From: JBDROU01 sp043809745 [NCBI: bacterium]
GTDB lineage: Bacteria; Elusimicrobiota; JBDRMW01
Direction: 5' to 3'
Assembly (NCBI GenBank): GCA_043809745.1
Contig: JBDROU010000032.1
Location: 32,678 to 96,677, forward strand
DNA: 64,000 nucleotides
Shown here in pieces: positions 13,219 to 43,467 of this stretch (the first letter of the stretch is position 1; each line of letters begins with the position of its first letter). The position numbers and the translations under genes are program-made. The notes below the pieces were generated by a model, which saw nothing but the letters and a program-made list of their open reading frames with translations, did not search any database and was not told the DNA's origin.

Positions 13219-13271
13219 TTTCACAAAAATTGCTGATTGTTTTGAGTAATTTTATTTTAAAGGAGGTAAAA

Positions 13272-13634
13272 ATGAAAGGGGAGGAAAAAAGAAGGGAAAT
13301 CAGAATCTTCGTTTCCTTGCCGGTAATCTTCCATGGAGAGCAGGATCAATCAGAAAATAGGGGGGATATAATTGATCTGAGCTTAGGCGGGATGAGTTTA
13401 AAAACTGGAATCGATCTGAAAGTGAACGATACGATTAAAGTTAAATTTGAAATCCCGACTGAGATGCGATTTATTTTTTTAGGGAAGATCATTACCAGCA
13501 GAGTGGAGAATAGCGAAAAGGTATTCGGCGTGAAATTTATAAAGCAAGATCCAGTAGATAGGCTTAACTTGAGTGAGTATATTATGCAAACAAGGTCTGA
13601 GCAGGAATTCTGGATAAAAGATAATTTCAAATAA
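13272..13634 (+). CDS. PilZ domain protein (c-di-GMP binding)
   Basis: 120 residues, a stand-alone PilZ domain. Both c-di-GMP-binding motifs are visible: RREIR (the RxxxR motif) near residue 7 and DLSLGGM (D/NxSxxG) about 30 residues later, on the expected beta-barrel. ATG 13272 follows a strong AAGGAGG; an in-frame TTG at 13230 would place that site inside the gene. The family reads c-di-GMP levels and often controls type IV pili or exopolysaccharide. The pilT operon begins about 100 bases downstream, and pilB and an HD-GYP protein also lie in the window. Confidence 0.85.
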   Translation: MKGEEKRREIRIFVSLPVIFHGEQDQSENRGDIIDLSLGGMSLKTGIDLKVNDTIKVKFEIPTEMRFIFLGKIITSRVENSEKVFGVKFIKQDPVDRLNLSEYIMQTRSEQEFWIKDNFK

Positions 13635-14818: not shown

Positions 14819-15913
14819 ATGAATGTAAATGAACTGCTGCAGTTAATGATAAAGAAAGGTATATCAGATATTCATTTTAAGGCTGCTTCTCCGCCCATAA
14901 TTCGGGTGAATGGAAAACTTATCGCGACAAACTTCGAAAACTTTACTGCTAAACATATTCATGAGTTAGCGTATAGTATTATGAGCCCTGAGCAGCAGGC
15001 TTTATTTGAGAGGGACAATGAGGTTGATATTTCGTACGCGATAGATGGCGTTTCGCGCTTTAGGGTCAACGTCTACCGTCAAAAAAACACTATAGCGGTT
15101 ACTTTAAGAGTAGTACCGCTAAAAATTAAGAGTTTTGAAGATCTTAATATGCCTGTTGAGGTATTGCGTAAGCTATCCGAAGAAACTAGGGGACTTATTC
15201 TTGTGGCCGGTATTACAGGCGCGGGCAAAACAACAACCTTAAATTCGATTATAGATTATATCAATAACCAATTTGCTTATAATATAGTTACTGTTGAAGA
15301 TCCTATTGAATTCTTCCATCAAGATAAAAAATCTACTATTTCACAGAGAGAAATTGGTTCAGATACAAAATCGTTTAAGAGCGCCCTTAAACATGTGCTT
15401 CGTCAGGATCCTGATGTGGTTGTTATTGGAGAGATGCGCGAGTTTGAAGCTATTGCTTCCGGTATAACTGCGGCAGAAACAGGACATCTTGTAATGTCTA
15501 CAATTCACACTATGGATTCTGTCCAGACTATAGACAGAATAGTTGATTCTTATCCGCCTCATCAACAGTTGCAGATACGTTTGCAGTTGGCAAATATTCT
15601 TAAAGGGGTCATAGGGCAGAGACTTCTTATTTCATCTGATGGAGAGATGCGATATCCAGCAACAGAAACCCTAATTTGCACTTCATTGATACGTAAATTA
15701 ATAGTAGAAGGAAAATCTCAGGAGATTTACAAAAGTATAGAGCAAGGTGATTATTATGGCATGCACACTTTTGATCAAGATCTGTACCGTCTTTATAAGC
15801 AGGGTAAGGTAAATTTAGAGGAAGCGCTCGAAAATGCAACCAATCCTGATGATTTGATGCTGAAAATCAGAGGGATAGGATCAGAGGCAGGTGTTAATAG
15901 TGGCAGTCAGTAA
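14819..15913 (+). CDS. pilT: Type IV pilus retraction ATPase PilT
   Basis: Hexameric ATPase that disassembles type IV pili. 364 residues with the full set: N-terminal PAS-like domain starting MNVNELLQLMIKKG.SDIHFK, Walker A G-x2-GAGKTTT near residue 135, Asp box and Walker B in RQDPDVVVIGEMRE near 200, His box in TGHLVMSTIHT near 225, and a PilT-type C-terminus (HTFDQDLYRLYKQGK). An AAGGAGG lies 7 bases upstream. The AIRNLIRE-type motif of classic PilT is not conserved; the matching place reads CTSLIRKLIVEGK. It lies in an operon with two proteins of unknown family and a histidine kinase; no pilin or pilC gene is adjacent. Confidence 0.93.
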   Translation: MNVNELLQLMIKKGISDIHFKAASPPIIRVNGKLIATNFENFTAKHIHELAYSIMSPEQQALFERDNEVDISYAIDGVSRFRVNVYRQKNTIAVTLRVVPLKIKSFEDLNMPVEVLRKLSEETRGLILVAGITGAGKTTTLNSIIDYINNQFAYNIVTVEDPIEFFHQDKKSTISQREIGSDTKSFKSALKHVLRQDPDVVVIGEMREFEAIASGITAAETGHLVMSTIHTMDSVQTIDRIVDSYPPHQQLQIRLQLANILKGVIGQRLLISSDGEMRYPATETLICTSLIRKLIVEGKSQEIYKSIEQGDYYGMHTFDQDLYRLYKQGKVNLEEALENATNPDDLMLKIRGIGSEAGVNSGSQ

Positions 15914-17750
15914 GTGGAAAATTGAAAAATATCCAAATGCTAAAAGCCCAAACCAGTGTGTTCTGAAGATTAGGGGTTCTAGGGACGATATCTTGTTCGT
16001 ATTCAATATGCTCATGCAAGATTGTGAGGTTCCTTACTCGATACATACTGGAGAGGAATATAATTGGGGTTTAGTTTTTACTGATCCTAAAGGTGAAGTT
16101 TCTGAAGAGATAAAGAAGCAATTGTTAGCTAGAGGCGGGGAAAATAGTGTTAGTCCTGAATCAAAAAGGCAAAAAGAAACTGAAGATTTGAAAAAAATTG
16201 AAATAACGGATTACTATGCTGATATAATGGAGGAAAGTGGAAAGTATAAAGTCGAGGGCAATAGCAGGAGTGATAGGTTCCCTCCAATAATCGAAGCAGG
16301 TAAAAGTGAGTCAGATGTTTCTAATTCGGAAGAGCCAAAATTAAGCAAACCTATTTTGGATAAAACAAAACAGGATAAACCTAAAACATCCTCATCTGAG
16401 GAAGAAACTCAGTTAAAGGAGCAGCATCAAAGGTTAAAGGAAGATATTTATGCGGCTGATCAGAGGCCAAAGGTCGCAAAAGATTTAAATATGGATAAAG
16501 AAATATTAGAACCTAAGGAAAATGTTCAAGAATATAATCAAGATAAGCTTGCTGAATCTTCGAAAGATCAGAAATGGGTGAACCAGCCGCAAGAGGTTGA
16601 AAAAGAAAGAGAGCGGAAAGATAAAGAAAAAGGTTCTGATTCGGATAAAGTTGAAATGAAGAATCTATTAGACGAGTTGAATGAAGTATTTTCTGACCTT
16701 ACAAAATCGGAAAGAGATAAGATGAGAGAAAAGCTTACATCTGATTTTGATGCTATTTCAAAGGAGCGTAGAAGGAGAAATGTGTTTGGAGAAGAAAGTA
16801 CTAATTTTGAAAAGGACAAAGGAGATGTTGATCAAAAACCGCGGCCTTCAAATGAAACTTTACCGCGCGAAGCATTTTCAGAAGATAAATTTGATTCTAA
16901 AAGAAATGTATTTGAGATTGAAAACAGAGATCATATGCAGACAAGATTAGGCCAAAAAAGAGATAATATTCCGAATAGCATGGAAACGAATTCCAATTTT
17001 CCCGACACATCTGATAGATCCGCTGAATCGTTTGAAGATGATTTTACGAATAAGCAAGTAACGCCTGATGATATGAGTGGTTTTGAAAGCAGGGGAGCTG
17101 AAAACAGAAATGAGCAGCCTGATGAAGGTCAATCCATAACTGAAGAAGTAAAAAAGGATGCAAAACTCCAAGAGATATTAAGGAATTTTAAACAACAGAA
17201 AAAGATGGGAAACACTCAAAAAGATCATGGTTCATATGATGCATCTGCTAATCAAGGTGATTCCTATATAGGAAAAGCTCAGCAGCAAGACGAAATAAAA
17301 CAAAAGCCAGAATATTTTGGAAAAGAACCGCATGAGCAACCGATGCATGCAGCCCAAAAATTTGAGAGCCCAAGCCCAATCAATATATGCTGTGTTTGTC
17401 CTTCAAATGAAAAAAGCGGTTTCCAATTATTTCAAGAAACAATAGAGGATGTAATAGAAAAAACTACTAAAACTGCTTTTTATTCAAATATTAGTTTGTC
17501 GATTGCAATGAATGTGGGAAATCCAAACATTCAAGGAATTATTGATGAGATAAAAAGTGTTAATGTAGATGTCGTTATCTTAATTGATGAGCCTGCTATA
17601 TCTAGAGCCGCAATTAATCAATTAACATTAAGCTTGAGTCAATTAAACATACCCTTTTACTCAATAAGCAAGAGTAAGATTGGTAAAAAGTTTGTATATG
17701 TTGATTTGGTAGTGGAATTAATGCTTAAGAAAAAGAATGTTAGAGAGTAG
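15900..17750 (+). CDS. Unknown EYNWG protein A: conserved N-domain, long charged linker, alpha/beta C-domain
   Basis: About 616 residues from GTG 15900 (GTG 15891 is possible); the start overlaps the end of pilT. Residues 1-75 form a compact domain with EYNWG at 53-57. Residues about 80-480 are a highly charged, E/K/D/Q-rich linker that looks disordered. Residues about 490-616 form an alternating beta/alpha domain (INICCVCPSN, ISLSIAMNV, VDVVILIDEP, IPFYSISKSK) resembling a Rossmann or flavodoxin-like fold. The next gene has the same N-domain and the same type of C-domain, so the two are paralogues. I do not recognise the family. The pilT overlap suggests a partner of the pilus motor. Confidence 0.65.
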   Translation: MAVSKWKIEKYPNAKSPNQCVLKIRGSRDDILFVFNMLMQDCEVPYSIHTGEEYNWGLVFTDPKGEVSEEIKKQLLARGGENSVSPESKRQKETEDLKKIEITDYYADIMEESGKYKVEGNSRSDRFPPIIEAGKSESDVSNSEEPKLSKPILDKTKQDKPKTSSSEEETQLKEQHQRLKEDIYAADQRPKVAKDLNMDKEILEPKENVQEYNQDKLAESSKDQKWVNQPQEVEKERERKDKEKGSDSDKVEMKNLLDELNEVFSDLTKSERDKMREKLTSDFDAISKERRRRNVFGEESTNFEKDKGDVDQKPRPSNETLPREAFSEDKFDSKRNVFEIENRDHMQTRLGQKRDNIPNSMETNSNFPDTSDRSAESFEDDFTNKQVTPDDMSGFESRGAENRNEQPDEGQSITEEVKKDAKLQEILRNFKQQKKMGNTQKDHGSYDASANQGDSYIGKAQQQDEIKQKPEYFGKEPHEQPMHAAQKFESPSPINICCVCPSNEKSGFQLFQETIEDVIEKTTKTAFYSNISLSIAMNVGNPNIQGIIDEIKSVNVDVVILIDEPAISRAAINQLTLSLSQLNIPFYSISKSKIGKKFVYVDLVVELMLKKKNVRE

Positions 17751-17778
17751 AAGTTAATATTTATTTAAGGGTTTAAAT

Positions 17779-20043
17779 ATGCTAGAACGTTGGGAATTTA
17801 TACACTTTCCTTGTATGAAAGATTCTCAGAGATACAAGCTAAAATTAAAAGCTGATGAAGATAATTTAAGAAAGATCGTAAGAATGCTTTCTGCTAATTC
17901 CGGTCGTCCATTTGCTTCGCTCTCGCATGAGTATAATTGGGGAGTTTATTTTTATAGTATAGATGAGAACGAAAAAAGAAGGATTACTGATACGCTAAAA
18001 AGGATTTGTAATCAGGGTAATGTCAGCCAGTCTGAAGTAATAATGGGGCAGGAACTCCCACCAATGTTCGAGGAGTTTTTAGAAGCTACAGCAAAGGAGT
18101 TAAAAGGCAATACAGACACTGTGGATGGATCATTGCAAATGGAGGAGCTTGGTTCTGCATCTGTGGATAAGAGCTCCGAGGGATCTGCCATAAAAGAAGA
18201 TAATAACATTATTTCCGGAGACAAAAATTCTGAAAATGCGGATCAAAATACCCGGATGCAGCCCTCTGTTGAAATATCGGAATTAAATGACCGTGAATCC
18301 GAATCAGTGCAAAAGGATGATTGGTCTATTGGTTCACCGGAAGCCCCGGAGCCAGATAAAATATTGGCAAAAGATGATGAAGCTTCTTTTAAAAACTCAG
18401 ATTCAAAAGAGACAGCATCTTCAAAATCTATGGGAAACATTGAAACAAGAACATTTCTTAATAAAAATTATACATTAAACGAATTCGTAGTGGGTTCTAA
18501 TAATCGTTTTACGCATGCGGCTGCTAAGGCGGTAGCGGAAAATCCCGGCAAAATTTATAATCCATTATTTATTTATGGAGGAGTTGGATTAGGGAAAACC
18601 CATCTGATGCATGCAGTGGGTCATTACGTTCTTGAGAAGTCTCCATCTATAAACGTGGTATATGTAACAACTGAGAGGTTTATGAGTGAGGTTATCGAAG
18701 CTATTGGCAAAGGCGAGATTCAGTCCTTTAGAGAAAAATATCGCAGCGTTGATCTGCTGCTTATAGATGATATTCAGTTTTTATCAGAATCTGAATCAAC
18801 ACAGGAAGAGTTTTTCCATACTTTTAATATGCTGCATGAGAGCGCAAGGCAAATCATTATAACTTCTGATAGGCCTCCAAAACAGTTGAGTACGCTTGAA
18901 GATAGACTGCGTTCCCGTTTTGAATGGGGATTGATTGCGGATATTAAATCACCGACTTTAGAGACCAGGGTTGCCATATTAAAAAGGAAAAATGAAGGCA
19001 GCAATGTATCCTTGGATGATAATATCCTGCTTTATATCGCGTCAAAATTAAAATCAAACATAAGAGAACTCGAAGGTTTCTTAAAAAGAGTAAATGCTTA
19101 TGCTGCTCTAACCGGGCAGGAGGTAGATATGGAGTCTGTTAAGTCCATAATGAGAGAGTTGCTGCCGGAAGATGAGATCGAAGAAGAAGATAAAGTTATT
19201 AAGGATACTGATATTTTAAGTCAGGCATTTGCTGAAGGTCCTGCTATGACTCAACAAGAAAATGTACAGGCTAACCCTGCGCCAAAGGGACAACTTCAAC
19301 CAGAACCATCATTTGTGCATGAACCTTTAGTGAATTTTATGGAAGGATTTTCAGCTGGAGAAACAACCCCTTCTTCACCTCAGAACGATCAATATAAATC
19401 ACCAGAATTGCAGCAGCCAGGAACACCTAATTTTCAACAAGATCAACCTTTTACACAGCAACAACAATTTACACCGCCGCCGCCTCCTCCTCCTCAATTT
19501 CAGACAATGTCCGCACCGCCGCCGCCTCCTCCTCCTCCTCAAATGCAGCAGGCGCCAACAATACCGCCTCCGGTACCTGTACAACTGAATTCTGGGAATC
19601 CATCTCCAGGATTTGGTGTTGCTGGTTTAAAAAATGATGGGGTGGATCAGAATCTAGTTCCTATTGAAGTAGCCTTCTTTTATCCAGAGGGTAAGGATAA
19701 AGAATTTAGCACAATGAAAGAAAAATTTAGACAAGTAATTAAAAAACATAAGCTGAAATTTAGATTTGAGAGTATTTTTGAAAGGGGTTACAACTATGGT
19801 CAAAAAATTAATTATGCGTTTTTTACGGAACTATGTAAGACTAACAATGTTAGGATAGTAATATTTCTTGGCGCCCCTCCAAACCAGAATTTTACCAGTG
19901 AGGATTCTTCTAATTTGCTTGGGGCGATGATGGAAGATGACAAAATCTCGATGCAATATGTGCCTTGGAATGAATTGAATAAAGATTATAGGTATCTAAA
20001 TCTAGCGCTTGATATAACTCTATTAAGGAACAAAAAGGTATGA
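17779..20043 (+). CDS. EYNWG protein B: DnaA-type AAA+ ATPase domain inside an unknown architecture
   Basis: 754 residues. Residues 1-75 match protein A's N-domain (EYNWG at 51-55). Residues about 215-445 are a DnaA domain [21 protein letters not shown], Walker [10 protein letters not shown] near 266, Walker [10 protein letters not shown] near 328, the arginine-rich RLRSRF box near 378 and [11 protein letters not shown] near 430. DnaA domain IV, the DNA-binding helix-turn-helix, is absent. In its place come a Q/P-rich region with two runs of 7 and 8 prolines (about 560-590) and an alpha/beta C-domain (about 620-754) like that of protein A. It is therefore not the replication initiator. Its stop overlaps the kinase gene by 4 bases. 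An ATP-driven switch for pilus or polarity control is my inference. Confidence 0.8.
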
Positions 20044-23003
20044 ATGTTTTCGCGAGAGTATCGGTAAGAATTAAGGAGATTATTCGTTTTTGGTTATTAT
20101 TCACATTTATTTCATTGATAATAGTTGCTCATTCTCTATTCTGGTTTGTTTTTAACATGAATAGTAATATGAAAGAAGAGATGCGTCCTCTTGTTGAAAA
20201 AAGTTTGTCTGTCGGAACCGCTGCTTTATTTTCAGATAAGAATAATACATCTGGAATATTTGATTTAAAGAAGGAAATTTCCAATTTGGAACAAACTGAA
20301 TATATAATTTATGTTCATGTGAGGAATATATTGGGGAAAATTTTAATACCGGGGAAAAAGAATTTTGAAGAGCTGCCTTATTTTTTTAAGGTTAAGTTTC
20401 CCATGCAAAAAGAACAAAATGTTTTGGCTTATCTTGAGATATGGTATGATTATTCTTATGGATTAAAGAAATATTATTCGATGCTATTTCTTGGCTTTAT
20501 TATTCTGCTGCATATAGCGATTCTTGTTACTATTGAATTGGCTCTTATTGAGTTAAAAGTATTTCAACCTGTGCGTATAGCTGCAGGGAACATTAATAGG
20601 ATACTAGATTGGAATTCAGACAGATTTGATTCAAAAGGATCATTAAAGGGGATCAAATTATTTGAAGGCAGAGCGACCGAGATTGTTGAAATAATGTCTG
20701 AAACTCAGGAAATACTCAATATGCTTTTTGATATATCCAAAACACTAACTCTAAATTTGGATATTCGTGAAATTCTAGATTCTGTGCTTGATACAATTCA
20801 GAAGAAATTTGATTTAATCAGCGTAGCTATACTTGAAGTTGGGGATGATGGCTATTTAAGAATTAAAAATCACAGAGGCTTTTCCCGTGAATTTGTTCGG
20901 ACAACAAAAGTAAGATTTGGATCAGGTGTAATGGGAAAGGTGTATGATACTGTAAGGACAGTAATAATAAATGATATTTCACGTGAAGGAGATTTGTTCA
21001 CGCAAGAAATGGCCGAACAAGAGCAAATTCAGTCTGCGCTTTATATCCCTCTTGTCCTTGAACAACAGCCGTTTGGGGTGCTTGTAGTAGCTTCAAGAAA
21101 TAAGAGCTATTTTGATTACCGCCGTATCAAAACATTAACCATGATTGCTGAGACATCCTCAATTGCTATGAGGAATGCTCGGCTTTATGAACAACTGCAA
21201 AATTTTAATAGACGGTTGGAAGCAGAGGTTACTTCCACCACGCAGGAGCTTACGCAAACTAATACAAGGCTAATCAAAAAGGTAAGAGAATTAAAAGCGC
21301 TCTATGATATAGCCTTTTCAACATCAATGCATTTAGATTTAGATCAAGTATTAAGTTTAATTGTAGAGAAAATTCAAGAAATATTAAATGTGGAATGCGT
21401 TAGTTTTGCTATTTATAATGAAAAGAAAAATGAATTGGTGCTAGAGCGAACAATGATTAGAGGAAAATTTGTAAATAATCAGCATAATTTCATCAGAATG
21501 ATTGATGCCGGTATTTTAACTCATGTTTTTAAGGGTGGAAGTCCATACATATCAAACAAGTTATTAAATGAAGAAAACAAGAATTTAGGTTTGCCGAAGG
21601 ATTATATTCTTAGAACGATTTTGTCTGTTCCGCTAAAGACCAAATATAAAACAGTAGGGGTGCTGACAGTTGGTAATAAAATAGACTCTCCATTTAATGA
21701 TGATGATCTTCGCCTGGTACAGGTACTTTGCAATCAAACTGGAGAAGTTATAGAAAACATAAAATTATATCAGGAAAACAAAAGACGGGTCCAGGATCTT
21801 ACTACACTTCAAGAGATGTCTTTTTCAATATCATTAAATAGTTCTCTGCATGACAATCTTAAAAAAATCTGTTCGATAATTGTTAGAGAATTTGAGGCAG
21901 ATTCTGCTGCATTTTTACTATTTGATGAAATGTCAAAGGAACTTATAATGGAAAAGGGATCTCATTTGTTGAAAGAAAGTCATTTTGATTATCGTATCAA
22001 AGAGGAAAATCAACGTTCATTGTCTGCAAGCGCATTCCGAATGGGAGAGCCTATATTAATGCCGGTGTATAACCCTCGAAGTACATTCCACGATGTTTTT
22101 GAGGAACAGCTTAAGTCTCTGCTGGTAATACCGCTTAAAATCGAAAATAAGATGATAGGAATATTGCATATGGGCAGTAAAAATGAGCGGTGTTTTGAAT
22201 TTGAAAAACTGCGTTTGGCCGCTCTTATAGCGGATCAAACTGCAGTTATTATTGAAAGATCGAAACTGTATGAGGAATTAAATAACGCGGTTAATGAACT
22301 TCAGCAAGCAGATAAAATAAAAAATGAATTTATTACGCATGTGTCGCATGAACTTAGGATTCCCATAAGTGCCATACAGGGATTTGTAAAAGCGCTCTTA
22401 AACAAGGAGACTGGTAAATTAAATGAACATCAGAAAAATATACTTCATCTAGCTGAAAAATTTGTGAGCAGATTAAATGTCTTGATAAATGATTTGCTGG
22501 ATGTCGCGCGTATGCAAAGAGGTGATATTCAGTTAAAGATGGCACCAAGCGCGATTGGGGGCATAGTGGATGAAGTGATTAAAGAATTAAAGCAGTTGTG
22601 GGAAGTTAAGGAACAAAAAATAACCGTTCAATCAAATAATAATGTACCTAAGATTATGATTGATTCGAAAAGATTTATACAAGTATTTAAAAATTTAATG
22701 CTAAATGCAATTAAATTCACTCCTCACGGCGGAGATATAATAATAAAAATTGAGCATCAGAATGGCAATGTAATGCTGTGCATAAAGGATAGTGGGATCG
22801 GGATTCCAACGGAAGATCAGCCGTTAGTCTTTAACCAATTTCATCAAATTGATAATCCGGTTCATAAAGAACTTAGAGGGTTTGGAGTGGGATTGTCAAT
22901 TGCAAAATCTATTATTGAGCTGCATAAAGGCAAAATAACTATAAATTCAGAACTAAATAAAGGCGCTGAATTCATTATTACAATACCTCTAAAAGATGAG
23001 TAG
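20040..23003 (+). CDS. Membrane-bound sensor histidine kinase with three GAF domains
   Basis: 987 residues. TM1 (about 16-38) and TM2 (about 146-172) enclose a periplasmic sensor of about 105 residues. Three GAF domains follow (about 232-380, 425-575 and 593-745), with a coiled linker after the first. The kinase core has the phospho-acceptor His near 769 in SHELRIP, an N box [11 protein letters not shown] near 885, DSGIGIP and a G box GFGVGLS near 947. All catalytic elements are intact. No response regulator is adjacent, so the partner is elsewhere. It is coupled by ATGA to the DnaA-like protein and ends the pilT operon, which suggests it controls or reads that machine. Confidence 0.88.
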
Positions 23004-23743: not shown

Positions 23744-24886
23744 ATGAGGAGTAAAACAAGGATACTGATTCTTATATTGCCTTTCCTGATTCTTGCTTGC
23801 GCCGGGAACAGGAAACTAACACGTACTTTTGATGGCCAACCAGGTGAGATTGTGATAGCTGAAGGCATAGCTCCAGTTATTGATGGTGATGTCTTAAATG
23901 CGAAGAAGGCTGCCCTTACCGAAGCTCAGAGAAGGGCTGTAGAGATGGTTGTAGGCGTCTATGTTACTGGAGAAACAAGAGTGGAAAAGGCTGTCTTAAT
24001 AGAATCTAATATCGTTTCTAAAACTAAAGGGTATATTGCCCAATACGATGTTCTTGAAGAAAAAATGCAAGATGGTTTCGTAAAAGTGAAAATAAAGGCA
24101 CTTGTTAAATTAGAGGATTTGAGTAAGGATTTGAAGGAGCTGGGCTTAATTGTTAAGCCAAGTGAAGTAGGAAATCCTAAAACAGCTGTTTTAATAAAGG
24201 AATCTTTAGATGGAAAAGATCAAACTTCTTCTGAAGCTGAATCAATGATTATACAGGAGCTTGTTAATAAGGGGTATTCAGTGGTTGAATCATCAAATCT
24301 TTCAGCAGAGGAGATAAAAGGTGTTTCAGCTGGGGAGGAGAGCTTCTATAAAAAACTCGCAGATAGATTGAAGGTTGAAGTTCTTGTGGTAGGAAAAGCA
24401 GTAAGTTCATTCTTTACAAGTGAGAATTTGGGAGGATTTGTATCTTATCGCGCTTCCATTTCTGCCAGGGTGTTAAAAGCTCAAACCGGGGAGGTGCTAA
24501 TTAGCGTGTCTCAACAGGCAAGCGGTGTTGATGTTGTTAAGCAGATAGCGGGTGAAAAAGCTCTTCAAAAGGTAGGACAGCTTGTTGGAAAGGAGTTATC
24601 TGTAAAAATTGCCCAGAAATTAAAAACGCATTCAGATATTGTGCTTACAATTAAGGATTTAAGTACAGTCAACGAACTTAACGAAATTACCAATTATTTA
24701 AGAAGAACAGCATATATAAAAGAATTAGTTATTAGCAGTTTTTCGTCAAATGAAGCTACGATCGATGTTCGCTTAAGTTCAGGTGATACCCAAAAGCTGG
24801 CCCAAACTTTGGGGAATATTCCTGGAAAGACATTCACAACTATTTCGTTGAGTAAATACCTGCTTTCGGTAAAAATTGAAAACTAA
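23744..24886 (+). CDS. FlgT-like lipoprotein
   Basis: 380 residues with lipobox LILAC near residue 19. Residues about 40-130 match the FlgT N-terminal pattern: A.G.AP...GDVL.AKKAAL.EAQRRAVE...GV.V, then I.SKTKGYI..Y.VLEE...DG.V.V.I.A.V. Residues about 145-290 look like the TolB-N/CsgG-type middle domain (TAVLIKE, E..IIQELVNKGY.VVE), and a third domain follows. In Vibrio, FlgT with FlgO and FlgP builds the H/T rings around the flagellar motor. No flagellar gene is seen here, so the ring may belong to another machine. Confidence 0.75.
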   Translation: MRSKTRILILILPFLILACAGNRKLTRTFDGQPGEIVIAEGIAPVIDGDVLNAKKAALTEAQRRAVEMVVGVYVTGETRVEKAVLIESNIVSKTKGYIAQYDVLEEKMQDGFVKVKIKALVKLEDLSKDLKELGLIVKPSEVGNPKTAVLIKESLDGKDQTSSEAESMIIQELVNKGYSVVESSNLSAEEIKGVSAGEESFYKKLADRLKVEVLVVGKAVSSFFTSENLGGFVSYRASISARVLKAQTGEVLISVSQQASGVDVVKQIAGEKALQKVGQLVGKELSVKIAQKLKTHSDIVLTIKDLSTVNELNEITNYLRRTAYIKELVISSFSSNEATIDVRLSSGDTQKLAQTLGNIPGKTFTTISLSKYLLSVKIEN

Positions 24887-24892
24887 ATATAT

Positions 24893-25528
24893 ATGTGTAA
24901 ATGGCGATTTTTTCTGTTACTCCTTTTTGGCAGCGCGGTTATTAGCTGCGCCATTAACCCAAAATACATAACAGATGATTTTCATCCACCGAGGACTGTT
25001 GCCCTTTTACCGGTTGCTAATCAAAGTAACGATCTTAATGCTCCTGAACTTGTCAGGAAGCTTATGTTGGAAGTATTGGTAAGCAAGGGTTATGAAGTAA
25101 AACCGTTGGATACAACTGATGAGATTTTAAAAAAAAACGGTATAAGTGAAGGTGGTCAGTTAAACGCGGTAACACCTGAAAAACTTGGGAAAGAGCTTGA
25201 TGTCGGCGGACTTTTTTATGGAGAGATCATTGAATATAATTTCATCAATGTAGGGGTGTATAGAAACAGGGTTGTGGAAATAGATTATAAGTTAGTTGAT
25301 CCTCAAACAGGAAAGATGCTTTGGGAGGATCAGAGGAAGGTTTCCAACAAGCAGTTTGAGTTTGATCAGGACAAAATGGTTAAATCTTTAGCGCTGGGAT
25401 TGGCTGAAAAAGTTATCGAAAATCTTATTTCGTCTCCGTTATTGCCTGAATGCAAGGCGGTAATAAATAAGATTGCGCGCACTCTGCCTCAAGTCTATGG
25501 AGATAGTTCTGGCCTAAGCGGTTATTAA
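24893..25528 (+). CDS. GNA1162/DUF799-type lipoprotein
   Basis: 211 residues, lipobox AVISC. The mature region follows the DUF799 pattern: PPRTVALLPVANQSNDLNAPELVRKLM, LV.KGYEV.PLDT.DEILK.NGI, and then L.VGGLFYGEI.EYN. That domain is structurally related to TolB-N and CsgG domains and is outer-membrane attached. It starts 6 bases after the previous gene without a clear Shine-Dalgarno, so it is probably translated by coupling. Confidence 0.8.
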   Translation: MCKWRFFLLLLFGSAVISCAINPKYITDDFHPPRTVALLPVANQSNDLNAPELVRKLMLEVLVSKGYEVKPLDTTDEILKKNGISEGGQLNAVTPEKLGKELDVGGLFYGEIIEYNFINVGVYRNRVVEIDYKLVDPQTGKMLWEDQRKVSNKQFEFDQDKMVKSLALGLAEKVIENLISSPLLPECKAVINKIARTLPQVYGDSSGLSGY

Positions 25529-25618
25529 GAAAGGCTGTAAAAGAAGAGTTTTTAATAGGAGAAAGCGTAATAAGTAAAGAACAGATCCAGCAGTAACAAA
25601 AAAAGAAAGGAGTAGTGT

Positions 25619-26545
25619 ATGTTAAAAAAATTTTTTGCAGTGAGTCTGATGGGTTGTTTTGTTATTATAGGCTGTGCTCCTTCAACATCAATTAAACAAA
25701 GGCAATCAACAACAGTAGAAGAAACCAAACACCTTAGAAGCGAGCATACAGGTCCAAAAAGAAGGGTGGGCGTTATCGATTTTGAAAACAAGACAACATA
25801 TGGCGCTCGATTAGGGCAATCTGCTACAGACATACTTATTACAGAGTTGGTAAAGACCAACCGTTTTATTGTTGTTGAAAGGGATAAAATGAATAAACTG
25901 CTTGAAGAACAAAAGCTTGGATTAACTGGCGTGATAAATCCAAATACCGTTGCTAAAGCAGGGAAACTGCTCGGGTTAAACGCAATAATAACAGGAAGTA
26001 TATCTCAGTTTGGCGCTAAAAAGGAAGGATCGGATTATCTGATTACTCAGAGCAAAAGGCAGATAGTTGAGGCAACAGTAGATATTCGTGTAGTAGATGT
26101 TGAAACTGGTCAAATCCTATATGCGGATTCAGGAAAAGGTGTTGTCAAAAAAGGTTCCGGCAAAGTTCTTGGAATGGGAACAAAGAGTAGTTATGACGAA
26201 ACACTTGAAGGGGAAGCATTGAGAGCTGCAATTGTAAAGTTTGTGGACAATATAGTTTCGCAAATCAGCGCAAGGCCTTGGTCATGTCGAGTCGCGATGG
26301 TTAAGGATTCGAGCATCTATTTAAATGCAGGCATTTTATCTGGGTTAAAGCCAAACACAGTGCTGATTGCTTATCATTTAGGCGAGGAGATTATAGATCC
26401 AACCACAGGGATTTCACTCGGTAATACTGAAGAGGAAATTGGGAGTTTGAAAATAGAAAGAAATTTTGGTGAAGATGGATCCATTGCAAAGTTGGTAGCT
26501 GGACAGATGCCGTCCAGCAACGATATTTGCAGATTAAAGCAATAA
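25619..26545 (+). CDS. CsgG-family lipoprotein with FlgT_C-like C-terminal domain
   Basis: 308 residues, lipobox IIGC. The CsgG core is clear: RVGVIDFENKT.YG.RLGQSATDILITEL, RFIVVERDKMNKLLEEQKLGLTG, A...G.LLG.NAIITGSISQFG, then V.ATVDIRVVDVETGQILYADSGKG. After about residue 225 comes a domain with SIYLNAGILSGLKPNTVLIAYHLGEEIIDPTTG.SLG, the pattern seen at the C-terminus of FlgT. GAAAGGAG precedes ATG 25619. CsgG secretes curli subunits as a nonameric pore, but many CsgG-domain proteins are not pores, and no csgA or csgE is nearby. Confidence 0.85.
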   Translation: MLKKFFAVSLMGCFVIIGCAPSTSIKQRQSTTVEETKHLRSEHTGPKRRVGVIDFENKTTYGARLGQSATDILITELVKTNRFIVVERDKMNKLLEEQKLGLTGVINPNTVAKAGKLLGLNAIITGSISQFGAKKEGSDYLITQSKRQIVEATVDIRVVDVETGQILYADSGKGVVKKGSGKVLGMGTKSSYDETLEGEALRAAIVKFVDNIVSQISARPWSCRVAMVKDSSIYLNAGILSGLKPNTVLIAYHLGEEIIDPTTGISLGNTEEEIGSLKIERNFGEDGSIAKLVAGQMPSSNDICRLKQ

Positions 26546-26708: not shown

Positions 26709-27521
26709 ATGGATGTTAAGCAGTTAAATGAAAAAGCTAATAATGTGCGAAAGCATATTATTAATATGTTAACCCAGGCTGGATCAGGTCATCCCGGTGG
26801 TTCGCTTTCAAGTGTGGATATTTTGGTGGGTTTGTATTTTAACTACATGAAGCATAATCCTAAAGAGCCATTATGGGATGAAAGGGACTTATTTATATTG
26901 TCAAAGGGGCATGGATGCCCCGCGTTATATTCCGTGCTTGCGGAATCTGGTTATTTCGATACCAAAGAGTTGATAACATTGAGAAAACTGGGAAGCAGAT
27001 TACAAGGTCATCCGGCCGGTCAATTAAGAGAAATAGGTATTGAGATGTCCAGCGGGTCTCTGGGACATGGTTTGTCTGTTGCTGTCGGAGCCGCGATTGG
27101 TATTAGGTGCAGAAAACAAAACAGGAGGGTCTATTGTTTAATGTCGGATGGGGAACAGCAGGAGGGTTCCGTGTGGGAAGCGGCAATGGCGGCAGGCCAT
27201 TTTAAGCTGGACAATCTTTGCGCTATTATCGATTATAATAATCTGCAGATTGACGGTGAAGTTGAGAATATTATGGGTGTTAAGCCTTTGGAGGATAAAT
27301 ACAAATCTTTTCGCTGGGAAGTTATCATGGTTGACGGGCATGATATAAAAGAGCTTATTGAGAGTTACAAAAAAGCGGAAAGTACAAAGAAAAAACCTAC
27401 TATAATAATCGCTAATACGATTAAAGGCAAGGGCATTTCTTTTATGGAAAATGTTGTGGGTTGGCATGGCAAGACCCCTTCGCAGGAAGCAGCAAATAAA
27501 GCTTTAAATGAATTAAAGTAG
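26709..27521 (+). CDS. Transketolase, N-terminal subunit (TPP-binding)
   Basis: 270 residues equal to the first half of a full transketolase. It shows SGHPGGSLS near residue 27, SKGHGCPALY near 80, the SGSLGHGLSVAVG stretch and the TPP motif SDGEQQEGSVWEA...DYNNLQIDG. The C-terminal half is encoded by the next gene, 19 bases downstream, so this is the split two-subunit form common in archaea and many anaerobes. It exchanges two-carbon units between pentose and hexose phosphates and stands just upstream of genes that feed ribose phosphates in. AAAGGAG precedes ATG 26709. Confidence 0.92.
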   Translation: MDVKQLNEKANNVRKHIINMLTQAGSGHPGGSLSSVDILVGLYFNYMKHNPKEPLWDERDLFILSKGHGCPALYSVLAESGYFDTKELITLRKLGSRLQGHPAGQLREIGIEMSSGSLGHGLSVAVGAAIGIRCRKQNRRVYCLMSDGEQQEGSVWEAAMAAGHFKLDNLCAIIDYNNLQIDGEVENIMGVKPLEDKYKSFRWEVIMVDGHDIKELIESYKKAESTKKKPTIIIANTIKGKGISFMENVVGWHGKTPSQEAANKALNELK

Positions 27522-27540
27522 AGAAAGGAAACTAATTATA

Positions 27541-28512
27541 ATGCCTCAGACATACGGTAAAAAAATGGCTTCTAGGTTTGGATATGGCGAAGCTCTTGTG
27601 GAATTGGGAGATAGTAATGATAGAGTGGTGGCCGTTGGTGTTGATGTTACCGGTTCTACCGGAGTGAATTTATTTGCGGATAAATTCCCAGGCAGATTTA
27701 TTCAATTAGGTATAGCTGAGCAAAATGCGCTTACTGTTAGTAGTGGGTTAGCCTTAAGCGGGTTGGTTCCATTTGTGTGCGGTTACAGCGCTTTTATTCT
27801 GGGGAGGGCATGGGACCAAATAAGAAATTCTGTGTGCTATCCGGATCTTAATGTTAAAATTGCAGGTTCTCACAGCGGTGTAACTGTTGGTCCGGACGGC
27901 GCTACACACCAAGCTATAGAGGAAATCAGTTTATTGCGTGTCCTTCCAAATATGAAAATCATAGTTCCATGCGATTATGAGGAAGCAAAACAGGCCACAC
28001 ATGCTATGGCTGCAATTCAAGGTCCGGTGTTTATCCGTTTGTGCCGTGTAGCGATGCCAATTATTACTTCTCCGAATGATAAATTCGAGTTTGGAAAAGC
28101 AAGAGTTTTAAGCAGCGGTAATGATGTCGCAATTATTGCTTGCGGTAATATGGTGTATGAGTCGCTTGTTTCCGGAGAGATGCTCGCAAAAGAGGGTATA
28201 CAGGCTTCAGTAATAAATGTACACACGATAAAACCGTTGGATGAAGAAACCATTGTTCAAACAGTACGAAGATGCGGTTGCGCCGTAACTGCTGAAGAAC
28301 ACCAAATAGCAGGCGGATTAGGCGGAACAATTTCTGAGCTGCTCGCTAAAAAATATCCCGTGCCAATGGAAATGATAGGCATAAATGATGTATTTGGTGA
28401 GTCAGGTGAACCTGAAGAGCTTCTGAAACACTTTTCTCTAAAAGCGGAAGATATCTGTGTTGGGGTAAGAAATGTATTAAAGAGGAAGAAGTCATCAGTT
28501 GTAAACCCTTAA
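27541..28512 (+). CDS. Transketolase, C-terminal subunit
   Basis: 323 residues containing the pyrimidine-binding and C-terminal domains. Typical pieces are GVDVTGSTG, RFIQLGIAEQNALTVSSGLALSG (the catalytic Glu is in AEQN), HSGVTVGPDGATHQAIEEISLLRVLPNM, and the C-terminal VHTIKPLDEETI and TAEEHQIAGGLGG. It completes the enzyme with the preceding gene. DXS and pyruvate dehydrogenase E1-beta share parts of this pattern, but the TPP half next door decides for transketolase. Confidence 0.92.
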   Translation: MPQTYGKKMASRFGYGEALVELGDSNDRVVAVGVDVTGSTGVNLFADKFPGRFIQLGIAEQNALTVSSGLALSGLVPFVCGYSAFILGRAWDQIRNSVCYPDLNVKIAGSHSGVTVGPDGATHQAIEEISLLRVLPNMKIIVPCDYEEAKQATHAMAAIQGPVFIRLCRVAMPIITSPNDKFEFGKARVLSSGNDVAIIACGNMVYESLVSGEMLAKEGIQASVINVHTIKPLDEETIVQTVRRCGCAVTAEEHQIAGGLGGTISELLAKKYPVPMEMIGINDVFGESGEPEELLKHFSLKAEDICVGVRNVLKRKKSSVVNP

Positions 28513-37071: not shown

Positions 37072-38613
37072 ATGAAATTACTGTTTAAATTTCTATTATT
37101 TAGCACAGCTCTCCTTTTTTTTACATCATTGCAGGCTAAAGAAATCGTTATAAATGAGATATTTTATAATGCTGTTGGTTCAGATGAAAATGAAGAATGG
37201 GTAGAGATCGTAAATATTTCCACTTCTTCAGTAGATATTAAAAATTGGAAATTCTACGATGGCAGCAATCATATCTTAAAATCAGTGCGCGGCGACCTGA
37301 TACTTCTTTCGCAGGAATACGTTGTCCTTTGTTCAAGCGGATCTAAATTTATTGATGAATATCCCTATTGCAGTGCAGATGTAGTTGATACCGTAATGAC
37401 ATTGAAGAATACAACAATGACTATCACATTATACGATGGAGATAATAATATGATTGATACGGTGACATATTATTCTGCTTGGAACAATGATGAAGACGGC
37501 AAGAGTATTGAAAGAAAGGAAGTGTTTTCTGAATCAAATGATTCGTCAAATTGGTTCGAGAGTAAGGAATTGGGAGGTACTCCCGGATCGAGCAATTCAT
37601 CCGGGCTGGTGGAAGAAGAGATACCTGAAGAGGAAGACGGACATACTACATCTATAACCGAACCAGAAGATTACGTTTACCCTGTAATAACAGAAGTCGC
37701 TCCAAATGAATTTAATGATTTTGTCGAACTGTATTATTTAGGGGGTGGTTATTGTCCAGGATTTGAGTTATTTCAAGGAGAAAGTTCCGTAAAAAGCGTA
37801 GGCGGGAATGAAGTTGAAAAGGATGATTATTGGGTGGTCTATTTTAATTCAACTCAGGTTGATGAGATCAGCGATGCCAATAGCAATGGTGTGTTGGAGT
37901 TTTATACTGCTCATAATGGGTTGACAGCTACAGATAATGTCATAAGCATAAGAAATACTGCAGGAACTATTTACGACGCGGTTATATTCAGCAACCAAGA
38001 TAGGGGAAGCTTCATATACAGCAGTAGTTATGATATTGCGGTAGCAACTGGTATTTGGGAGCCGGAGGTTGTATCAGGATATGTAGCTGATTATGAAAAA
38101 AATTCAGTTAATTATGTAAATGGAGGTACGGGCAAATCAGTGGCGAGAAAACTGTTGAGTACTGGTTTCCCAAGTGTAAGCAGTCCTGGCAATGCCTCGG
38201 ATTGGTGGATAAGTAACGTGCTAACTCCCGGAGAAGGATACAGTTTGGAGCAGCACTCTAATAAAGAATGTTTGGAGATAATTGGGCCGAATCCGTTTTC
38301 TCCATACGATTCTGATCCAGGAAGAAGAATGGCGTCAATTTCCTTTCAAGTGCCGGATTTAGCGGTAAAGAGAATGTATATTTTTGATGTTCGCGGCAGA
38401 AAAAGAATTAATTTAATTGATAATGATATTACTTTCCAGGGAGTTATGCTGGCAGGGCAGGGCAGTGGTTTTATCAGTTGGGATGGTTCGGATAGCAATG
38501 GAGATATTGTTCCGATGGGTATTTACATTGTCTATCTGGAAGCGCAGGATTCACATTCCGGTGCGGTTTGGCAAGGCAAGAAAACTATTGTAGTTGCGAA
38601 ACAATTGAGGTAG
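37072..38613 (+). CDS. Secreted lamin-tail-domain protein with FlgD-like C-terminal domain
   Basis: 513 residues. A signal peptide (1-22, ending LQAKE) leads into a lamin tail domain (about 23-175: IVINEIFYNA...NEEWVEIVNIS..SVDI.NW.FYDG, ending with a GGTPGSSN segment). An acidic linker (EEEIPEEEDG) and a second, divergent LTD-like part (about 200-390) follow. The C-terminus (about 400-510) has GPNPFSPYDSD...VRGR and ISWDGSDSNGDIVPMGIYIVYLEA, the FlgD Ig-like pattern often found at the end of exported surface proteins. It is probably a surface or periplasmic structural protein, possibly binding polysaccharide or another surface partner. Confidence 0.85.
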   Translation: MKLLFKFLLFSTALLFFTSLQAKEIVINEIFYNAVGSDENEEWVEIVNISTSSVDIKNWKFYDGSNHILKSVRGDLILLSQEYVVLCSSGSKFIDEYPYCSADVVDTVMTLKNTTMTITLYDGDNNMIDTVTYYSAWNNDEDGKSIERKEVFSESNDSSNWFESKELGGTPGSSNSSGLVEEEIPEEEDGHTTSITEPEDYVYPVITEVAPNEFNDFVELYYLGGGYCPGFELFQGESSVKSVGGNEVEKDDYWVVYFNSTQVDEISDANSNGVLEFYTAHNGLTATDNVISIRNTAGTIYDAVIFSNQDRGSFIYSSSYDIAVATGIWEPEVVSGYVADYEKNSVNYVNGGTGKSVARKLLSTGFPSVSSPGNASDWWISNVLTPGEGYSLEQHSNKECLEIIGPNPFSPYDSDPGRRMASISFQVPDLAVKRMYIFDVRGRKRINLIDNDITFQGVMLAGQGSGFISWDGSDSNGDIVPMGIYIVYLEAQDSHSGAVWQGKKTIVVAKQLR

Positions 38614-41712: not shown

Positions 41713-43437
41713 ATGGGTAAAGGGAATGTACGTAAAAAGAACCTAAGGGATATATTATTAGATAATAAACTGCTTACAGAAGAGCAGCTTAATAAGGTTA
41801 TAGAAGAAGCTGCTAAGACCGACCAGCCGTTACAGCAAGTAGTAATAAATAATAAACTTATAGATAAAATTGAATTCCTACAGGTGCTCTCGTCGGAATG
41901 GAGCGTTCGGGCTATTGACCTGTCCGAGCTGGAGATAGATTCGGATATAGTAAAAATAATTCCCGAAACAAGCGCAAGAAGGCATCTGGCTATGCCGTTT
42001 GCTAAAGAGGAATCTGTATTATTTGTAGCTATGGCTAATCCGAGAGATTTCTTTGTATCTGAGGATATACATCTTAGAACGGGATTCGAGGTTCAGTCAT
42101 ATCTCTCAATGCCGGATGATATCATTGCCGCGCTTGATAAAGTATATGGGGCTAAAGAAGGGGAGGCCTTAAGAAAGATACTGGATAACGTAGGCAAGGA
42201 AACAGGCGCTGATCTCAAACTGGATGAGGGGAGGGAAGAGGAAAAAGTAGACATTTCAGATGTGGACGTGGCCGCTCCTGAGGTAGAGAAGATAGTCAAT
42301 GCGATTATTCTGGAAGCTTTGCAGAAAAAAGCATCTGACATCCATATTGAACCTTTTGAAGGAAAAATAATGGTCAGATACCGAATTGACGGGAATTTAT
42401 GCGAATCTAACTTTGCGCCGCCATTTAATTACCGTTTTGCTGTCATAGCAAAGATCAAGATTATGACCCAGCAGATGGATATCACTGAAAGAAGAAAACC
42501 GCAAGACGGCAGAATTCAAATTCTTTCTTCAGGCAAGCCAATTGAATTCAGGGTAAATATTATTCCTACTGTTTTTGGTGAATCCTGCGTTATGAGGGTG
42601 TTGGACAGGGCTTCTGTGAGGGTTGATATGGATAAAATGGGGTTCCTGCCGGATACGCTTGAAAAGTTTAAGAGATGTCTTGACAGGCCATACGGGTTAA
42701 TACTGGTTTGCGGACCTACCGGAAGCGGGAAATCAACTACTCTTTATTCAGCTCTAAATTTTATTAATAGTCCGGATACAAAGATTATTACCGCCGAGAA
42801 TCCGGTTGAGTACAATCTGGGCGGGATTATACAATTAAATGTGAACCAGGAGATAGGGTTGGATTTTTCCTCTGCTTTAAGAGCTTTTTTAAGACAGGAT
42901 CCGGATGTTATAATGGTTGGGGAAATACGTGATAAAGAAACTGCGACTATTGCTTTGGAAGCTGCTATGACTGGTCATCTTGTATTTTCAACCGTACATA
43001 CTAATGATGCATCAAGCGCTGTTGCGCGTCTGCATGAGATGGGAGTCCCAAGTTTTCTTATATCATCAACGTTGGAGTGCATTCTTGCCCAGAGATTAGT
43101 AAGAAAAATATGCCAGAATTGCATAGAACCCGTTCAGCCGACCAAGGAAGTTTTGGATTATTTGAAGGCGTATAAAATTGATACTTCAAACATAAAACTT
43201 ATGCACGGAGCAGGCTGTTCGGAATGCAGCAATATGGGATATAAGGGCAGATGCGGGGTGCATGAACTTCTGGTAATGACAGATGATGTAAGATCATTTA
43301 CTTTAAAGGAGTTGGCCTCCGGCCCGATTCATGATTTTGCTGTATCCAGGGGAATGCGCACTATGCTGCAGGACGGTTTAACAAAGGTTACTATGGGAGT
43401 TACAACTATAGAAGAAATTCTTACGGTTGCCCAGTAA
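41713..43437 (+). CDS. pilB: Type IV pilus assembly ATPase PilB
   Basis: Extension motor of the pilus. 574 residues. An MshEN (GspE-N) domain covers about 1-150 (LRDILLDNKLLTEEQL, MPFAKEESVLFVAMANP). The ATPase core follows with ASDIHIEPFE near 210, Walker A GPTGSGKSTT near 334, the Asp box RQDPDVIMVGEIRD near 397 and the His box TGHLVFSTVHTND near 418. Four cysteines of the zinc-binding C-terminal part (ICQNC and GCSEC) are present. The MshEN domain binds c-di-GMP in many relatives, which fits the PilZ and HD-GYP proteins nearby. The retraction partner PilT lies 26 kb upstream in another operon. Confidence 0.94.
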   Translation: MGKGNVRKKNLRDILLDNKLLTEEQLNKVIEEAAKTDQPLQQVVINNKLIDKIEFLQVLSSEWSVRAIDLSELEIDSDIVKIIPETSARRHLAMPFAKEESVLFVAMANPRDFFVSEDIHLRTGFEVQSYLSMPDDIIAALDKVYGAKEGEALRKILDNVGKETGADLKLDEGREEEKVDISDVDVAAPEVEKIVNAIILEALQKKASDIHIEPFEGKIMVRYRIDGNLCESNFAPPFNYRFAVIAKIKIMTQQMDITERRKPQDGRIQILSSGKPIEFRVNIIPTVFGESCVMRVLDRASVRVDMDKMGFLPDTLEKFKRCLDRPYGLILVCGPTGSGKSTTLYSALNFINSPDTKIITAENPVEYNLGGIIQLNVNQEIGLDFSSALRAFLRQDPDVIMVGEIRDKETATIALEAAMTGHLVFSTVHTNDASSAVARLHEMGVPSFLISSTLECILAQRLVRKICQNCIEPVQPTKEVLDYLKAYKIDTSNIKLMHGAGCSECSNMGYKGRCGVHELLVMTDDVRSFTLKELASGPIHDFAVSRGMRTMLQDGLTKVTMGVTTIEEILTVAQ

Positions 43438-43467
43438 ATAGTTAATAATTTCAGGAGAGAATTAGAG

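What the first reader, a model, noticed from the sequence alone, without database searches (positions are those of the whole stretch)
15900..20043. Paired EYNWG proteins downstream of pilT, one built around a DnaA-type AAA+ motor
Two adjacent proteins share an N-terminal domain (about 75 residues, EYNWG motif) and a similar alpha/beta C-terminal domain, joined by long disordered linkers. In the second, a complete DnaA domain III is inserted, while the DNA-binding domain IV is missing and replaced by a polyproline region. The first overlaps pilT, the second overlaps a histidine kinase. I know of no described system with this layout. It could be an ATP-switched assembly that controls pilus motors or cell polarity, with protein A as the ATPase-free partner of protein B.
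Basis: partly seen in the sequence, partly recalled or inferred. Interest (0 to 1): 0.88.

Follow-up and report, generated by a model that had tools for sequence, protein, structure and literature searches.

The report
DnaA motor rebuilt beside pilus gene
An uncultured bacterium carries, right after its pilus-retraction motor gene, two related proteins of which one contains the ATP-driven core of the DNA-replication starter DnaA but has lost parts that grip DNA, so the core has probably been reused for a job other than starting replication.

Summary
A (15891-17750) and B (17779-20043) share a significant N-domain (blastp E 6e-6; z 12) and a weaker C-domain (z 5.3). B carries a full DnaA domain III (Pfam 2e-72; it passes NCBI's DnaA cut-off), with no domain I or IV match and a polyproline tract behind it. 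New here: (1) B keeps the nine E. coli ATPase and interface residues mapped, but the ssDNA-gripping lysine (K243; 98 K and 2 R in 100 DnaA rows) is serine. With domain IV gone, this argues against a replication initiator. (2) The predicted C-domain has the fold of Argonaute/PIWI MID domains (best Z 14.2), without sequence-family match. (3) B's N-domain resembles HisG_C only weakly. (4) No relative of the pair was found in the genomes reachable here; the host is not placed and its genome is not held. Best reading: B is an ATP-switched AAA+ scaffold taken from DnaA, working with ATPase-free A in a pilT-A-B-kinase gene cluster. That it acts on pili rests on gene order alone. A Hda-like regulator of replication is the main rival. 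New variant of a known kind (DnaA-clade AAA+ without domain IV).

The parts
14819..15913 (+). pilT, type IVa pilus retraction ATPase family
   Evidence: TIGR01420 447.8 bits, cut-off 319.1
15891..17750 (+). protein A, 619 aa, ATPase-free paralogue; overlaps pilT by 23 nt
   Evidence: ORF; no Pfam, NCBIfam or PHROGs family
15906..16145 (+). N-domain of A (residues 6-85, EYNWG at 56)
   Evidence: similar to B's N-domain: E 6e-6, z 12
16146..17366 (+). long charged, probably disordered linker of A
   Evidence: about 410 aa, hydrophobic 0.20, charged 0.41, net -20
17367..17747 (+). C-domain of A (residues 493-619)
   Evidence: 23% identical to B's C-domain; z 5.3
17779..20043 (+). protein B, 754 aa
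   Evidence: ORF
17779..18021 (+). N-domain of B (residues 1-81, EYNWG at 51)
   Evidence: model pLDDT 70.8; weak HisG_C resemblance
18022..18444 (+). acidic linker 1 of B
   Evidence: hydrophobic 0.21, net -20
18445..19176 (+). DnaA domain III (AAA+), residues 223-466
   Evidence: PF00308 2.1e-72; nine mapped ATPase/interface residues kept
18790..18792 (+). codon of S338, equivalent of E. coli DnaA K243 (ssDNA-binding lysine)
   Evidence: 98 K and 2 R of 100 DnaA rows; mapping; role (PMC8235120 passage)
19474..19539 (+). polyproline runs (residues 566-587) inside linker 2, in the region where DnaA domain IV would follow
   Evidence: linker 2 is 21% Pro, 15% Gln
19651..20040 (+). C-domain of B (residues 625-754), Argonaute-MID-like fold
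   Evidence: model pLDDT 81.7, pTM 0.77; VIA Z 14.2
20040..23003 (+). sensor histidine kinase: three GAF stretches, HisKA, HATPase; overlaps B by 4 nt

Best explanation
B is a DnaA-derived AAA+ switch that no longer works on DNA. SHOWN (sequence): the nucleotide-binding, hydrolysis, arginine-finger and sensor-2 residues are kept, domain IV is gone, and the conserved ssDNA-binding lysine is serine. INFERRED: ATP-bound B assembles into a DnaA-like spiral or short filament, and hydrolysis takes it apart. Its N-domain and MID-like C-domain, carried on flexible acidic and Pro/Gln-rich arms, act as docking or ligand-sensing heads. A has the same two heads without the motor and so competes with or caps the assembly, or bridges it to a target. 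From gene order, the likeliest input and output are the GAF histidine kinase and the PilT retraction motor. Binding to either has not been tested.
For: AAA+ core: B keeps 94 of 104 columns that are at least 90% conserved in 100 DnaA rows. E. coli K178, T179, E204, R227, D235, D236, R281, R285 and R334 all map to the same residue in B. Of 14 departures from columns at least 85% conserved, five lie in the initiator-specific helix region and the B-motif loop: T298, M302 (T in 91 of 100 rows), S303 (N in 100 of 100), E337 (G in 89), S338 (K in 98, R in 2); the other nine are scattered. PMC8235120 (passage) names V211 and K243 as important for ssDNA contact and relatively well conserved. No domain IV. 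A and B share both end domains. Tight pilT-A-B-kinase arrangement. The window also holds PilZ at 13230-13634 and a PilB/GspE-type ATPase with an MshEN domain, followed by a GAF-HD protein, at 41713-44655.
Against: Only one instance is known, so neither the operon nor the domain pairing is shown to be conserved. No interaction was predicted or tested. The V211 position keeps a hydrophobic residue (I306), and R245, also Ser in B, is Ser in 52 of 100 rows, so the DNA-release case inside domain III rests mainly on one lysine plus S303; E. coli itself does not have N at the S303 position (it is Q, from the alignment). Some DNA contact through other residues is possible. Gene order may reflect co-transcription only; tpiA and transketolase genes lie nearby too.
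Confidence: 0.42

Rival explanations
1. B is a Hda-like regulator of the true DnaA: its intact AAA+ interface inserts into DnaA-ATP oligomers and triggers hydrolysis or blocks them, linking replication timing to surface or pilus state.
For: Arg-finger, box VII and sensor-2 residues and 94 of 104 conserved columns are kept. The core is far closer to DnaA than to Hda (TIGR00362 375 bits against TIGR03420 107.6), which would suit mixed oligomers.
Against: No clamp-binding QL[SD]LF-type motif in A or B (the motif is recalled). TIGR03420 is far under its cut-off of 194.8. Among the genes annotated here no replication-initiation gene lies beside it; the nearest DNA gene is recJ, 12 kb away. The kept interface suits self-assembly as well.
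Confidence: 0.22
2. A/B are cytoplasmic signalling partners of the GAF histidine kinase, with pilT only a co-transcribed neighbour.
For: 4-nt overlap between B and the kinase. Both end domains look like small alpha/beta folds (the N-domain model is weak).
Against: The pilT-A junction overlaps too (23 nt). Pfam finds no receiver domain in A or B.
Confidence: 0.18
3. The MID-like domain binds nucleotides or nucleic-acid ends, and B is a nucleic-acid-handling AAA+ (helicase-loader or defence-like).
For: MID fold Z 14.2; AAA+ similarity to DnaC/IstB-type loaders.
Against: No ArgoMid or PIWI sequence match. The protein ends right after the MID-like domain. PADLOC gives only a 39-residue P-loop match, E 4e-5. 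The ssDNA lysine is lost.
Confidence: 0.1
4. B is still a replication initiator or the host's divergent DnaA.
For: Passes NCBI's DnaA cut-off. No whole genome is held, so a separate canonical dnaA could not be looked for.
Against: No domain IV, K243 position Ser, pilT and kinase as neighbours instead of dnaN.
Confidence: 0.05

Closest known systems
DnaA (chromosomal replication initiator), domain III
   Same: Full AAA+ core, up to 70% identity over 155 aa to bacterial DnaA; nine mapped ATPase, Arg-finger and sensor-2 residues
   Different: No domain I or IV match, K243 position Ser, new N- and C-domains on long linkers, next to pilT
Hda / HdaA
   Same: DnaA-type AAA+ without domain IV
   Different: B scores 107.6 bits against a cut-off of 194.8, has no clamp motif, and carries two extra domains
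Argonaute/PIWI MID domain
   Same: Same fold as the predicted C-domain (best Z 14.2, rmsd 2.4, 120 of 130 residues)
   Different: 9-16% identity in the rows shown, no PIWI domain, no Pfam match
HisG C-terminal domain (PF08029)
   Same: Weak profile similarity to B's N-domain
   Different: E 0.16 only; A's N-domain does not match; no HisG catalytic part
IstB / DnaC / DnaI helicase-loader ATPases
   Same: Same AAA+ clade
   Different: Much lower score than DnaA; no accessory domain of theirs was found in B

Membership tests
DnaA replication initiator | AAA+ domain III with Walker A/B, sensor 1, Arg finger R285, sensor 2 R334 | tested here: met
   PF00308 2.1e-72; residue mapping; S363-D364 of the sensor 1 strand as in 100 of 100 rows
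DnaA replication initiator | Domain IV (helix-turn-helix dsDNA binding) | tested here: not met
   No DnaA C-terminal family at E<=1; TIGR00362 match stops at 343/437; no motif
DnaA replication initiator | Domain I at the N-terminus | tested here: not met
   No DnaA N-terminal family at E<=1; the N-domain matches the paralogue A instead
DnaA replication initiator | ssDNA-binding lysine of the B motif (E. coli K243) | tested here: not met
   S338; 98 K and 2 R of 100 rows; role from PMC8235120 passage
DnaA replication initiator | Hydrophobic residue of the H motif (E. coli V211) | tested here: met
   I306; I in 96 and V in 4 of 100 rows
Hda | Hda profile over its cut-off | tested here: not met
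   TIGR03420 107.6 against 194.8
Hda | Clamp-binding motif QL[SD]LF type (recalled) | tested here: not met
Argonaute MID | MID fold | tested here: met
   Predicted model of B's C-domain; VIA Z 14.2 and the 50 rows shown are all Argonaute/PIWI; Foldseek alone lists lumazine synthase at similar E (1.3e-4 against 7.9e-5)
Argonaute MID | Sequence family match (Pfam) | tested here: not met
   No Argonaute family for either C-domain; the one row is Ferrochelatase, E 0.06, in A
Argonaute MID | 5'-phosphate pocket residues | tested here: inconclusive
   No residue-level structural alignment was available
Argonaute | PIWI domain after MID | tested here: not met
   B ends with the domain
HisG_C (PF08029) | Significant profile match | tested here: inconclusive
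   Profile of 28 HisG_C not chosen for likeness to B: 11.4 bits, rank 1 of 11,598 ORFs, E 0.16, above all 2000 shuffles (max 6.7); A: none. PF08029 itself does not list B at E<=10
Type IV pilus system | Physical or regulatory link of A/B to PilT | not testable with these tools
   Only adjacency shown

The most novel reading that the evidence does not exclude
The replication initiator's ATP-driven spiral has been captured by surface motility: B, stripped of its DNA-binding domain and of the conserved ssDNA lysine and fitted with a ferredoxin-like N-head and an Argonaute-MID-like C-head (perhaps a nucleotide or second-messenger sensor), polymerises with ATP under kinase control, and together with the motorless A gates PilT retraction or places it at a pole.
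Probability: 0.2. Interest if true: 0.85.

Novelty: new variant of a known kind. Interest (0 to 1): 0.52.

Why it matters
DnaA-clade AAA+ proteins are known (recalled) as initiators, initiator regulators and helicase or transposase loaders, all in DNA transactions. A DnaA core that keeps its ATP switch and loses its DNA grips would be a natural test of what a DnaA spiral can do without DNA. It is also an annotation trap: B passes the DnaA cut-off and would probably be named DnaA. The MID-like fold outside Argonautes, in an ATPase-linked pair, raises the question of whether that pocket senses nucleotides elsewhere.

Tried and rejected
Relatives: a 416-aa query of the four A/B end domains in genome contigs found none (19 stretches matched, none confirmed). 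Spliced N+C of B or the two-row profile A3 of A and B: phylum of G001, a record named Omnitrophota, 6 of 285 genomes with a match at E<=0.001 (1.1e-4 to 6.6e-4, per genome, running over stop codons), all six on the end of a HisG-like ORF (HisG named from recall and from likeness to the PF08029 loci); phylum of G002 (Saganbacteria record) 1 of 74 at E 0.0065, a chance match over stops; phylum of G004 (record titled Deltaproteobacteria) 0 of 198 at E<=0.001; phylum of G006 (Atribacteria record) 0 of 50 at E<=0.001; class of G224 0 of 384 at E<=1e-4; phylum of G005 (Planctomycetota record) 0 of 294 at E<=1e-4. The sets overlap in part. Without a genome known to match, an empty answer is weak. Full B against 384 genomes of the phylum of G001: 321 with a DnaA-type hit at E<=1e-20, three of them with two hits; no listed row (the list is cut) reaches B's N- or C-domain, longest listed open frame 595 aa.

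Host: not placed. GroEL is up to 69% identical to Omnitrophota genomes against at most 65% in the other genomes searched (24 genomes, 18 with a match). ArgS is up to 48% against at most 44% over comparable lengths (79 genomes, 68 with a match), while a 237-residue ArgS fragment in G002 reached 47%. PilT is only 43% at best in one Omnitrophota class (41 of 49 genomes with a match). The domain III tree leaves B on a long, unresolved branch.

N-domain structure: Foldseek best E 0.21, VIA best Z 6.1, model pLDDT 70.8, so no fold is claimed. C-domain against viral models: nothing at E<=0.001, best 1.6e-3. PDB sequence searches with N and C profiles: best E 1.2 and 0.26. Pfam on the single domains at E<=10: only SpoIVA_C, LAMTOR, DUF2175 (E 0.08-0.19, B N-domain) and Ferrochelatase (E 0.06, A C-domain), all under their cut-offs.

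Papers (search listings only unless said): searches gave no description of a DnaA core with pilT or with a MID domain; the library holds open-licence PMC papers only. One search listed five papers; single passages were read in PMC5835720, PMC5043065 and PMC8235120.

Rejected: misassembly or recent import (codon usage). Defence system (only a 39-residue P-loop match).
Full report
What is there. Downstream of tpiA and a PilZ-domain gene lies pilT (14819-15913; TIGR01420 447.8 bits), then A (15891-17750), B (17779-20043) and a sensor kinase with three GAF stretches, HisKA and HATPase (20040-23003), all on the + strand. pilT and A overlap by 23 nt, A and B are 28 nt apart, B and the kinase overlap by 4 nt.

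Is the A-B similarity real? The N-domains match at E 6e-6 (blastp with compositional adjustment) and z 12 against shuffles. The C-domains match at z 5.3, with 1 of 1000 shuffles as good. Both domains lie at the same ends of the two proteins. Among 11,726 ORFs of the window and 154 fetched loci, the C profile finds only A and B at E<=1; the N profile finds A and B (E 2e-44, 6e-43) and three weak rows: two HisG-like ORFs in loci fetched because they resembled B (E 0.02, 0.65) and the window's transketolase ORF (E 0.36). The segments between are low in hydrophobic residues and charged or Pro/Gln-rich, consistent with disorder; no disorder predictor was run.

The motor. B residues 227-387 are Bac_DnaA (2.1e-72) and residues 194-466 match TIGR00362 at 375 bits, over NCBI's own cut-off of 343.9, although the profile's last 94 positions, the domain IV part, are missing. 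Against 100 DnaA rows, B keeps 94 of 104 columns that are at least 90% conserved. Mapping on E. coli K-12 DnaA, fetched, shows K178, T179, E204, R227, D235, D236, R281, R285 and R334 all kept (their roles are recalled). So ATP binding, hydrolysis and the subunit-subunit arginine contacts are very likely functional (inference from established AAA+ knowledge).

What is lost. Domain IV has no trace. Within domain III, B departs from 14 columns that are at least 85% conserved. Five are in the initiator-specific helix region or the B-motif loop: T298, M302 (T in 91 of 100 rows), S303 (N in 100 of 100), E337 (G in 89) and S338, the K243 position (98 K, 2 R of 100). The other nine are scattered. PMC8235120 (passage) states that residues equal to E. 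coli V211 and K243 are important for ssDNA interaction and relatively well conserved, and R245/S246 less so. PMC5043065 (passage) reports that V211A and R245A prevent DUE binding and opening; PMC5835720 (passage) names V211 and R245 as direct ssDNA contacts. In B the V211 position stays hydrophobic (I306) and the R245 position is Ser, as in 52 of 100 rows. So one of the two well conserved ssDNA contacts is gone, together with the dsDNA-binding domain. I read this as release from DNA work. It is not proof of no DNA contact.

The C-domain. AlphaFold2 with only the two window sequences gave pLDDT 81.7 and pTM 0.77 for B's C-domain. Foldseek ranks human AGO2 MID first (E 7.9e-5), with lumazine synthase close behind (1.3e-4). 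The second look, limited to Foldseek's 1000 best chains, shows Argonaute/PIWI MID domains in all 50 rows listed, Z 14.2 to 12.1, the best with rmsd 2.4 over 120 of 130 residues, 9-16% identity. This is a fold match, well above the Z 7-8 that the tool's note gives as typical for models without a clear match. It is not evidence of guide binding: no Pfam match and no PIWI domain. Residues shared by A and B include P12, N48, G50 and P76, which by the predicted elements lie at or just after strands 1, 2 and 3; they may mark a ligand or partner site (inference).

The N-domain. The model is weak (pLDDT 70.8) and finds no convincing fold. One lead: the six weak hits among 285 Omnitrophota-phylum genomes (E 1e-4 to 7e-4 per genome) all fall on the end of a HisG-like ORF. 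No such hit appeared in the 74 genomes. I tested the lead with HisG_C sequences from 38 other handles (30 with a match). A profile of 28 of the 30 loci (two were not parsed by my script) scores B 11.4 bits, first of 11,598 ORFs but at E 0.16, above the best of 2000 shuffles (6.7); A does not match. A profile of the six selected HisG ORFs scores B higher (19.1 bits), but those were chosen for likeness. I keep it as a lead towards a ferredoxin-like regulatory fold.

Relatives. None found. The scans and their limits are listed under Tried and rejected. The host is not held as a genome. Its GroEL and ArgS are closest to Omnitrophota genomes among those searched, but not close. The absence of relatives therefore says little: the right lineage may not have been searched.

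Mechanism. The parts suggest an ATP-switched scaffold with two heads and a motorless twin. The pilT and kinase neighbours, the PilZ protein and a PilB/GspE-type ATPase with MshEN followed by a GAF-HD protein 22 kb away make a pilus or c-di-GMP context plausible. Every step from 'ATPase kept' to 'controls PilT' is inference. The strongest rival keeps B in replication control as a Hda-like partner of DnaA. Deletion, expression and interaction tests would separate the two.

Verdict. New variant of a known kind: a DnaA-clade AAA+ without domain IV, in an architecture for which my searches found no precedent.

Noticed in passing
window 49166-64000 (+, runs off the end): One open reading frame of at least 4945 aa with many short YD/YNKY-like repeats, by eye reminiscent of RHS-type proteins; no Pfam match at E<=0.01.
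   Followed up: partly
window 41713-44655: A PilB/GspE-type ATPase with an MshEN domain followed by a GAF-HD protein: pilus or secretion ATPase and probable c-di-GMP signalling in the same window.
   Followed up: partly
window 23744-26545: Three genes after the kinase that look like outer-membrane or lipoprotein genes: FlgT_N-like (under its cut-off), GNA1162-like, CsgG/LpoB.
   Followed up: no
window 37072-38613: A bacterial protein with a Lamin Tail Domain (PF00932, 55.8 bits).
   Followed up: no
window 26709-28512: Transketolase split into two genes (N- and C-parts).
   Followed up: no
window 1-64000: GC skew is positive in all 16 windows of 4 kb and 42 of the 47 listed ORFs of at least 120 aa lie on the + strand.
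   Followed up: no
window 17779-20043: B passes the NCBIfam DnaA cut-off without domain IV, so automatic annotation would probably call it DnaA.
   Followed up: yes
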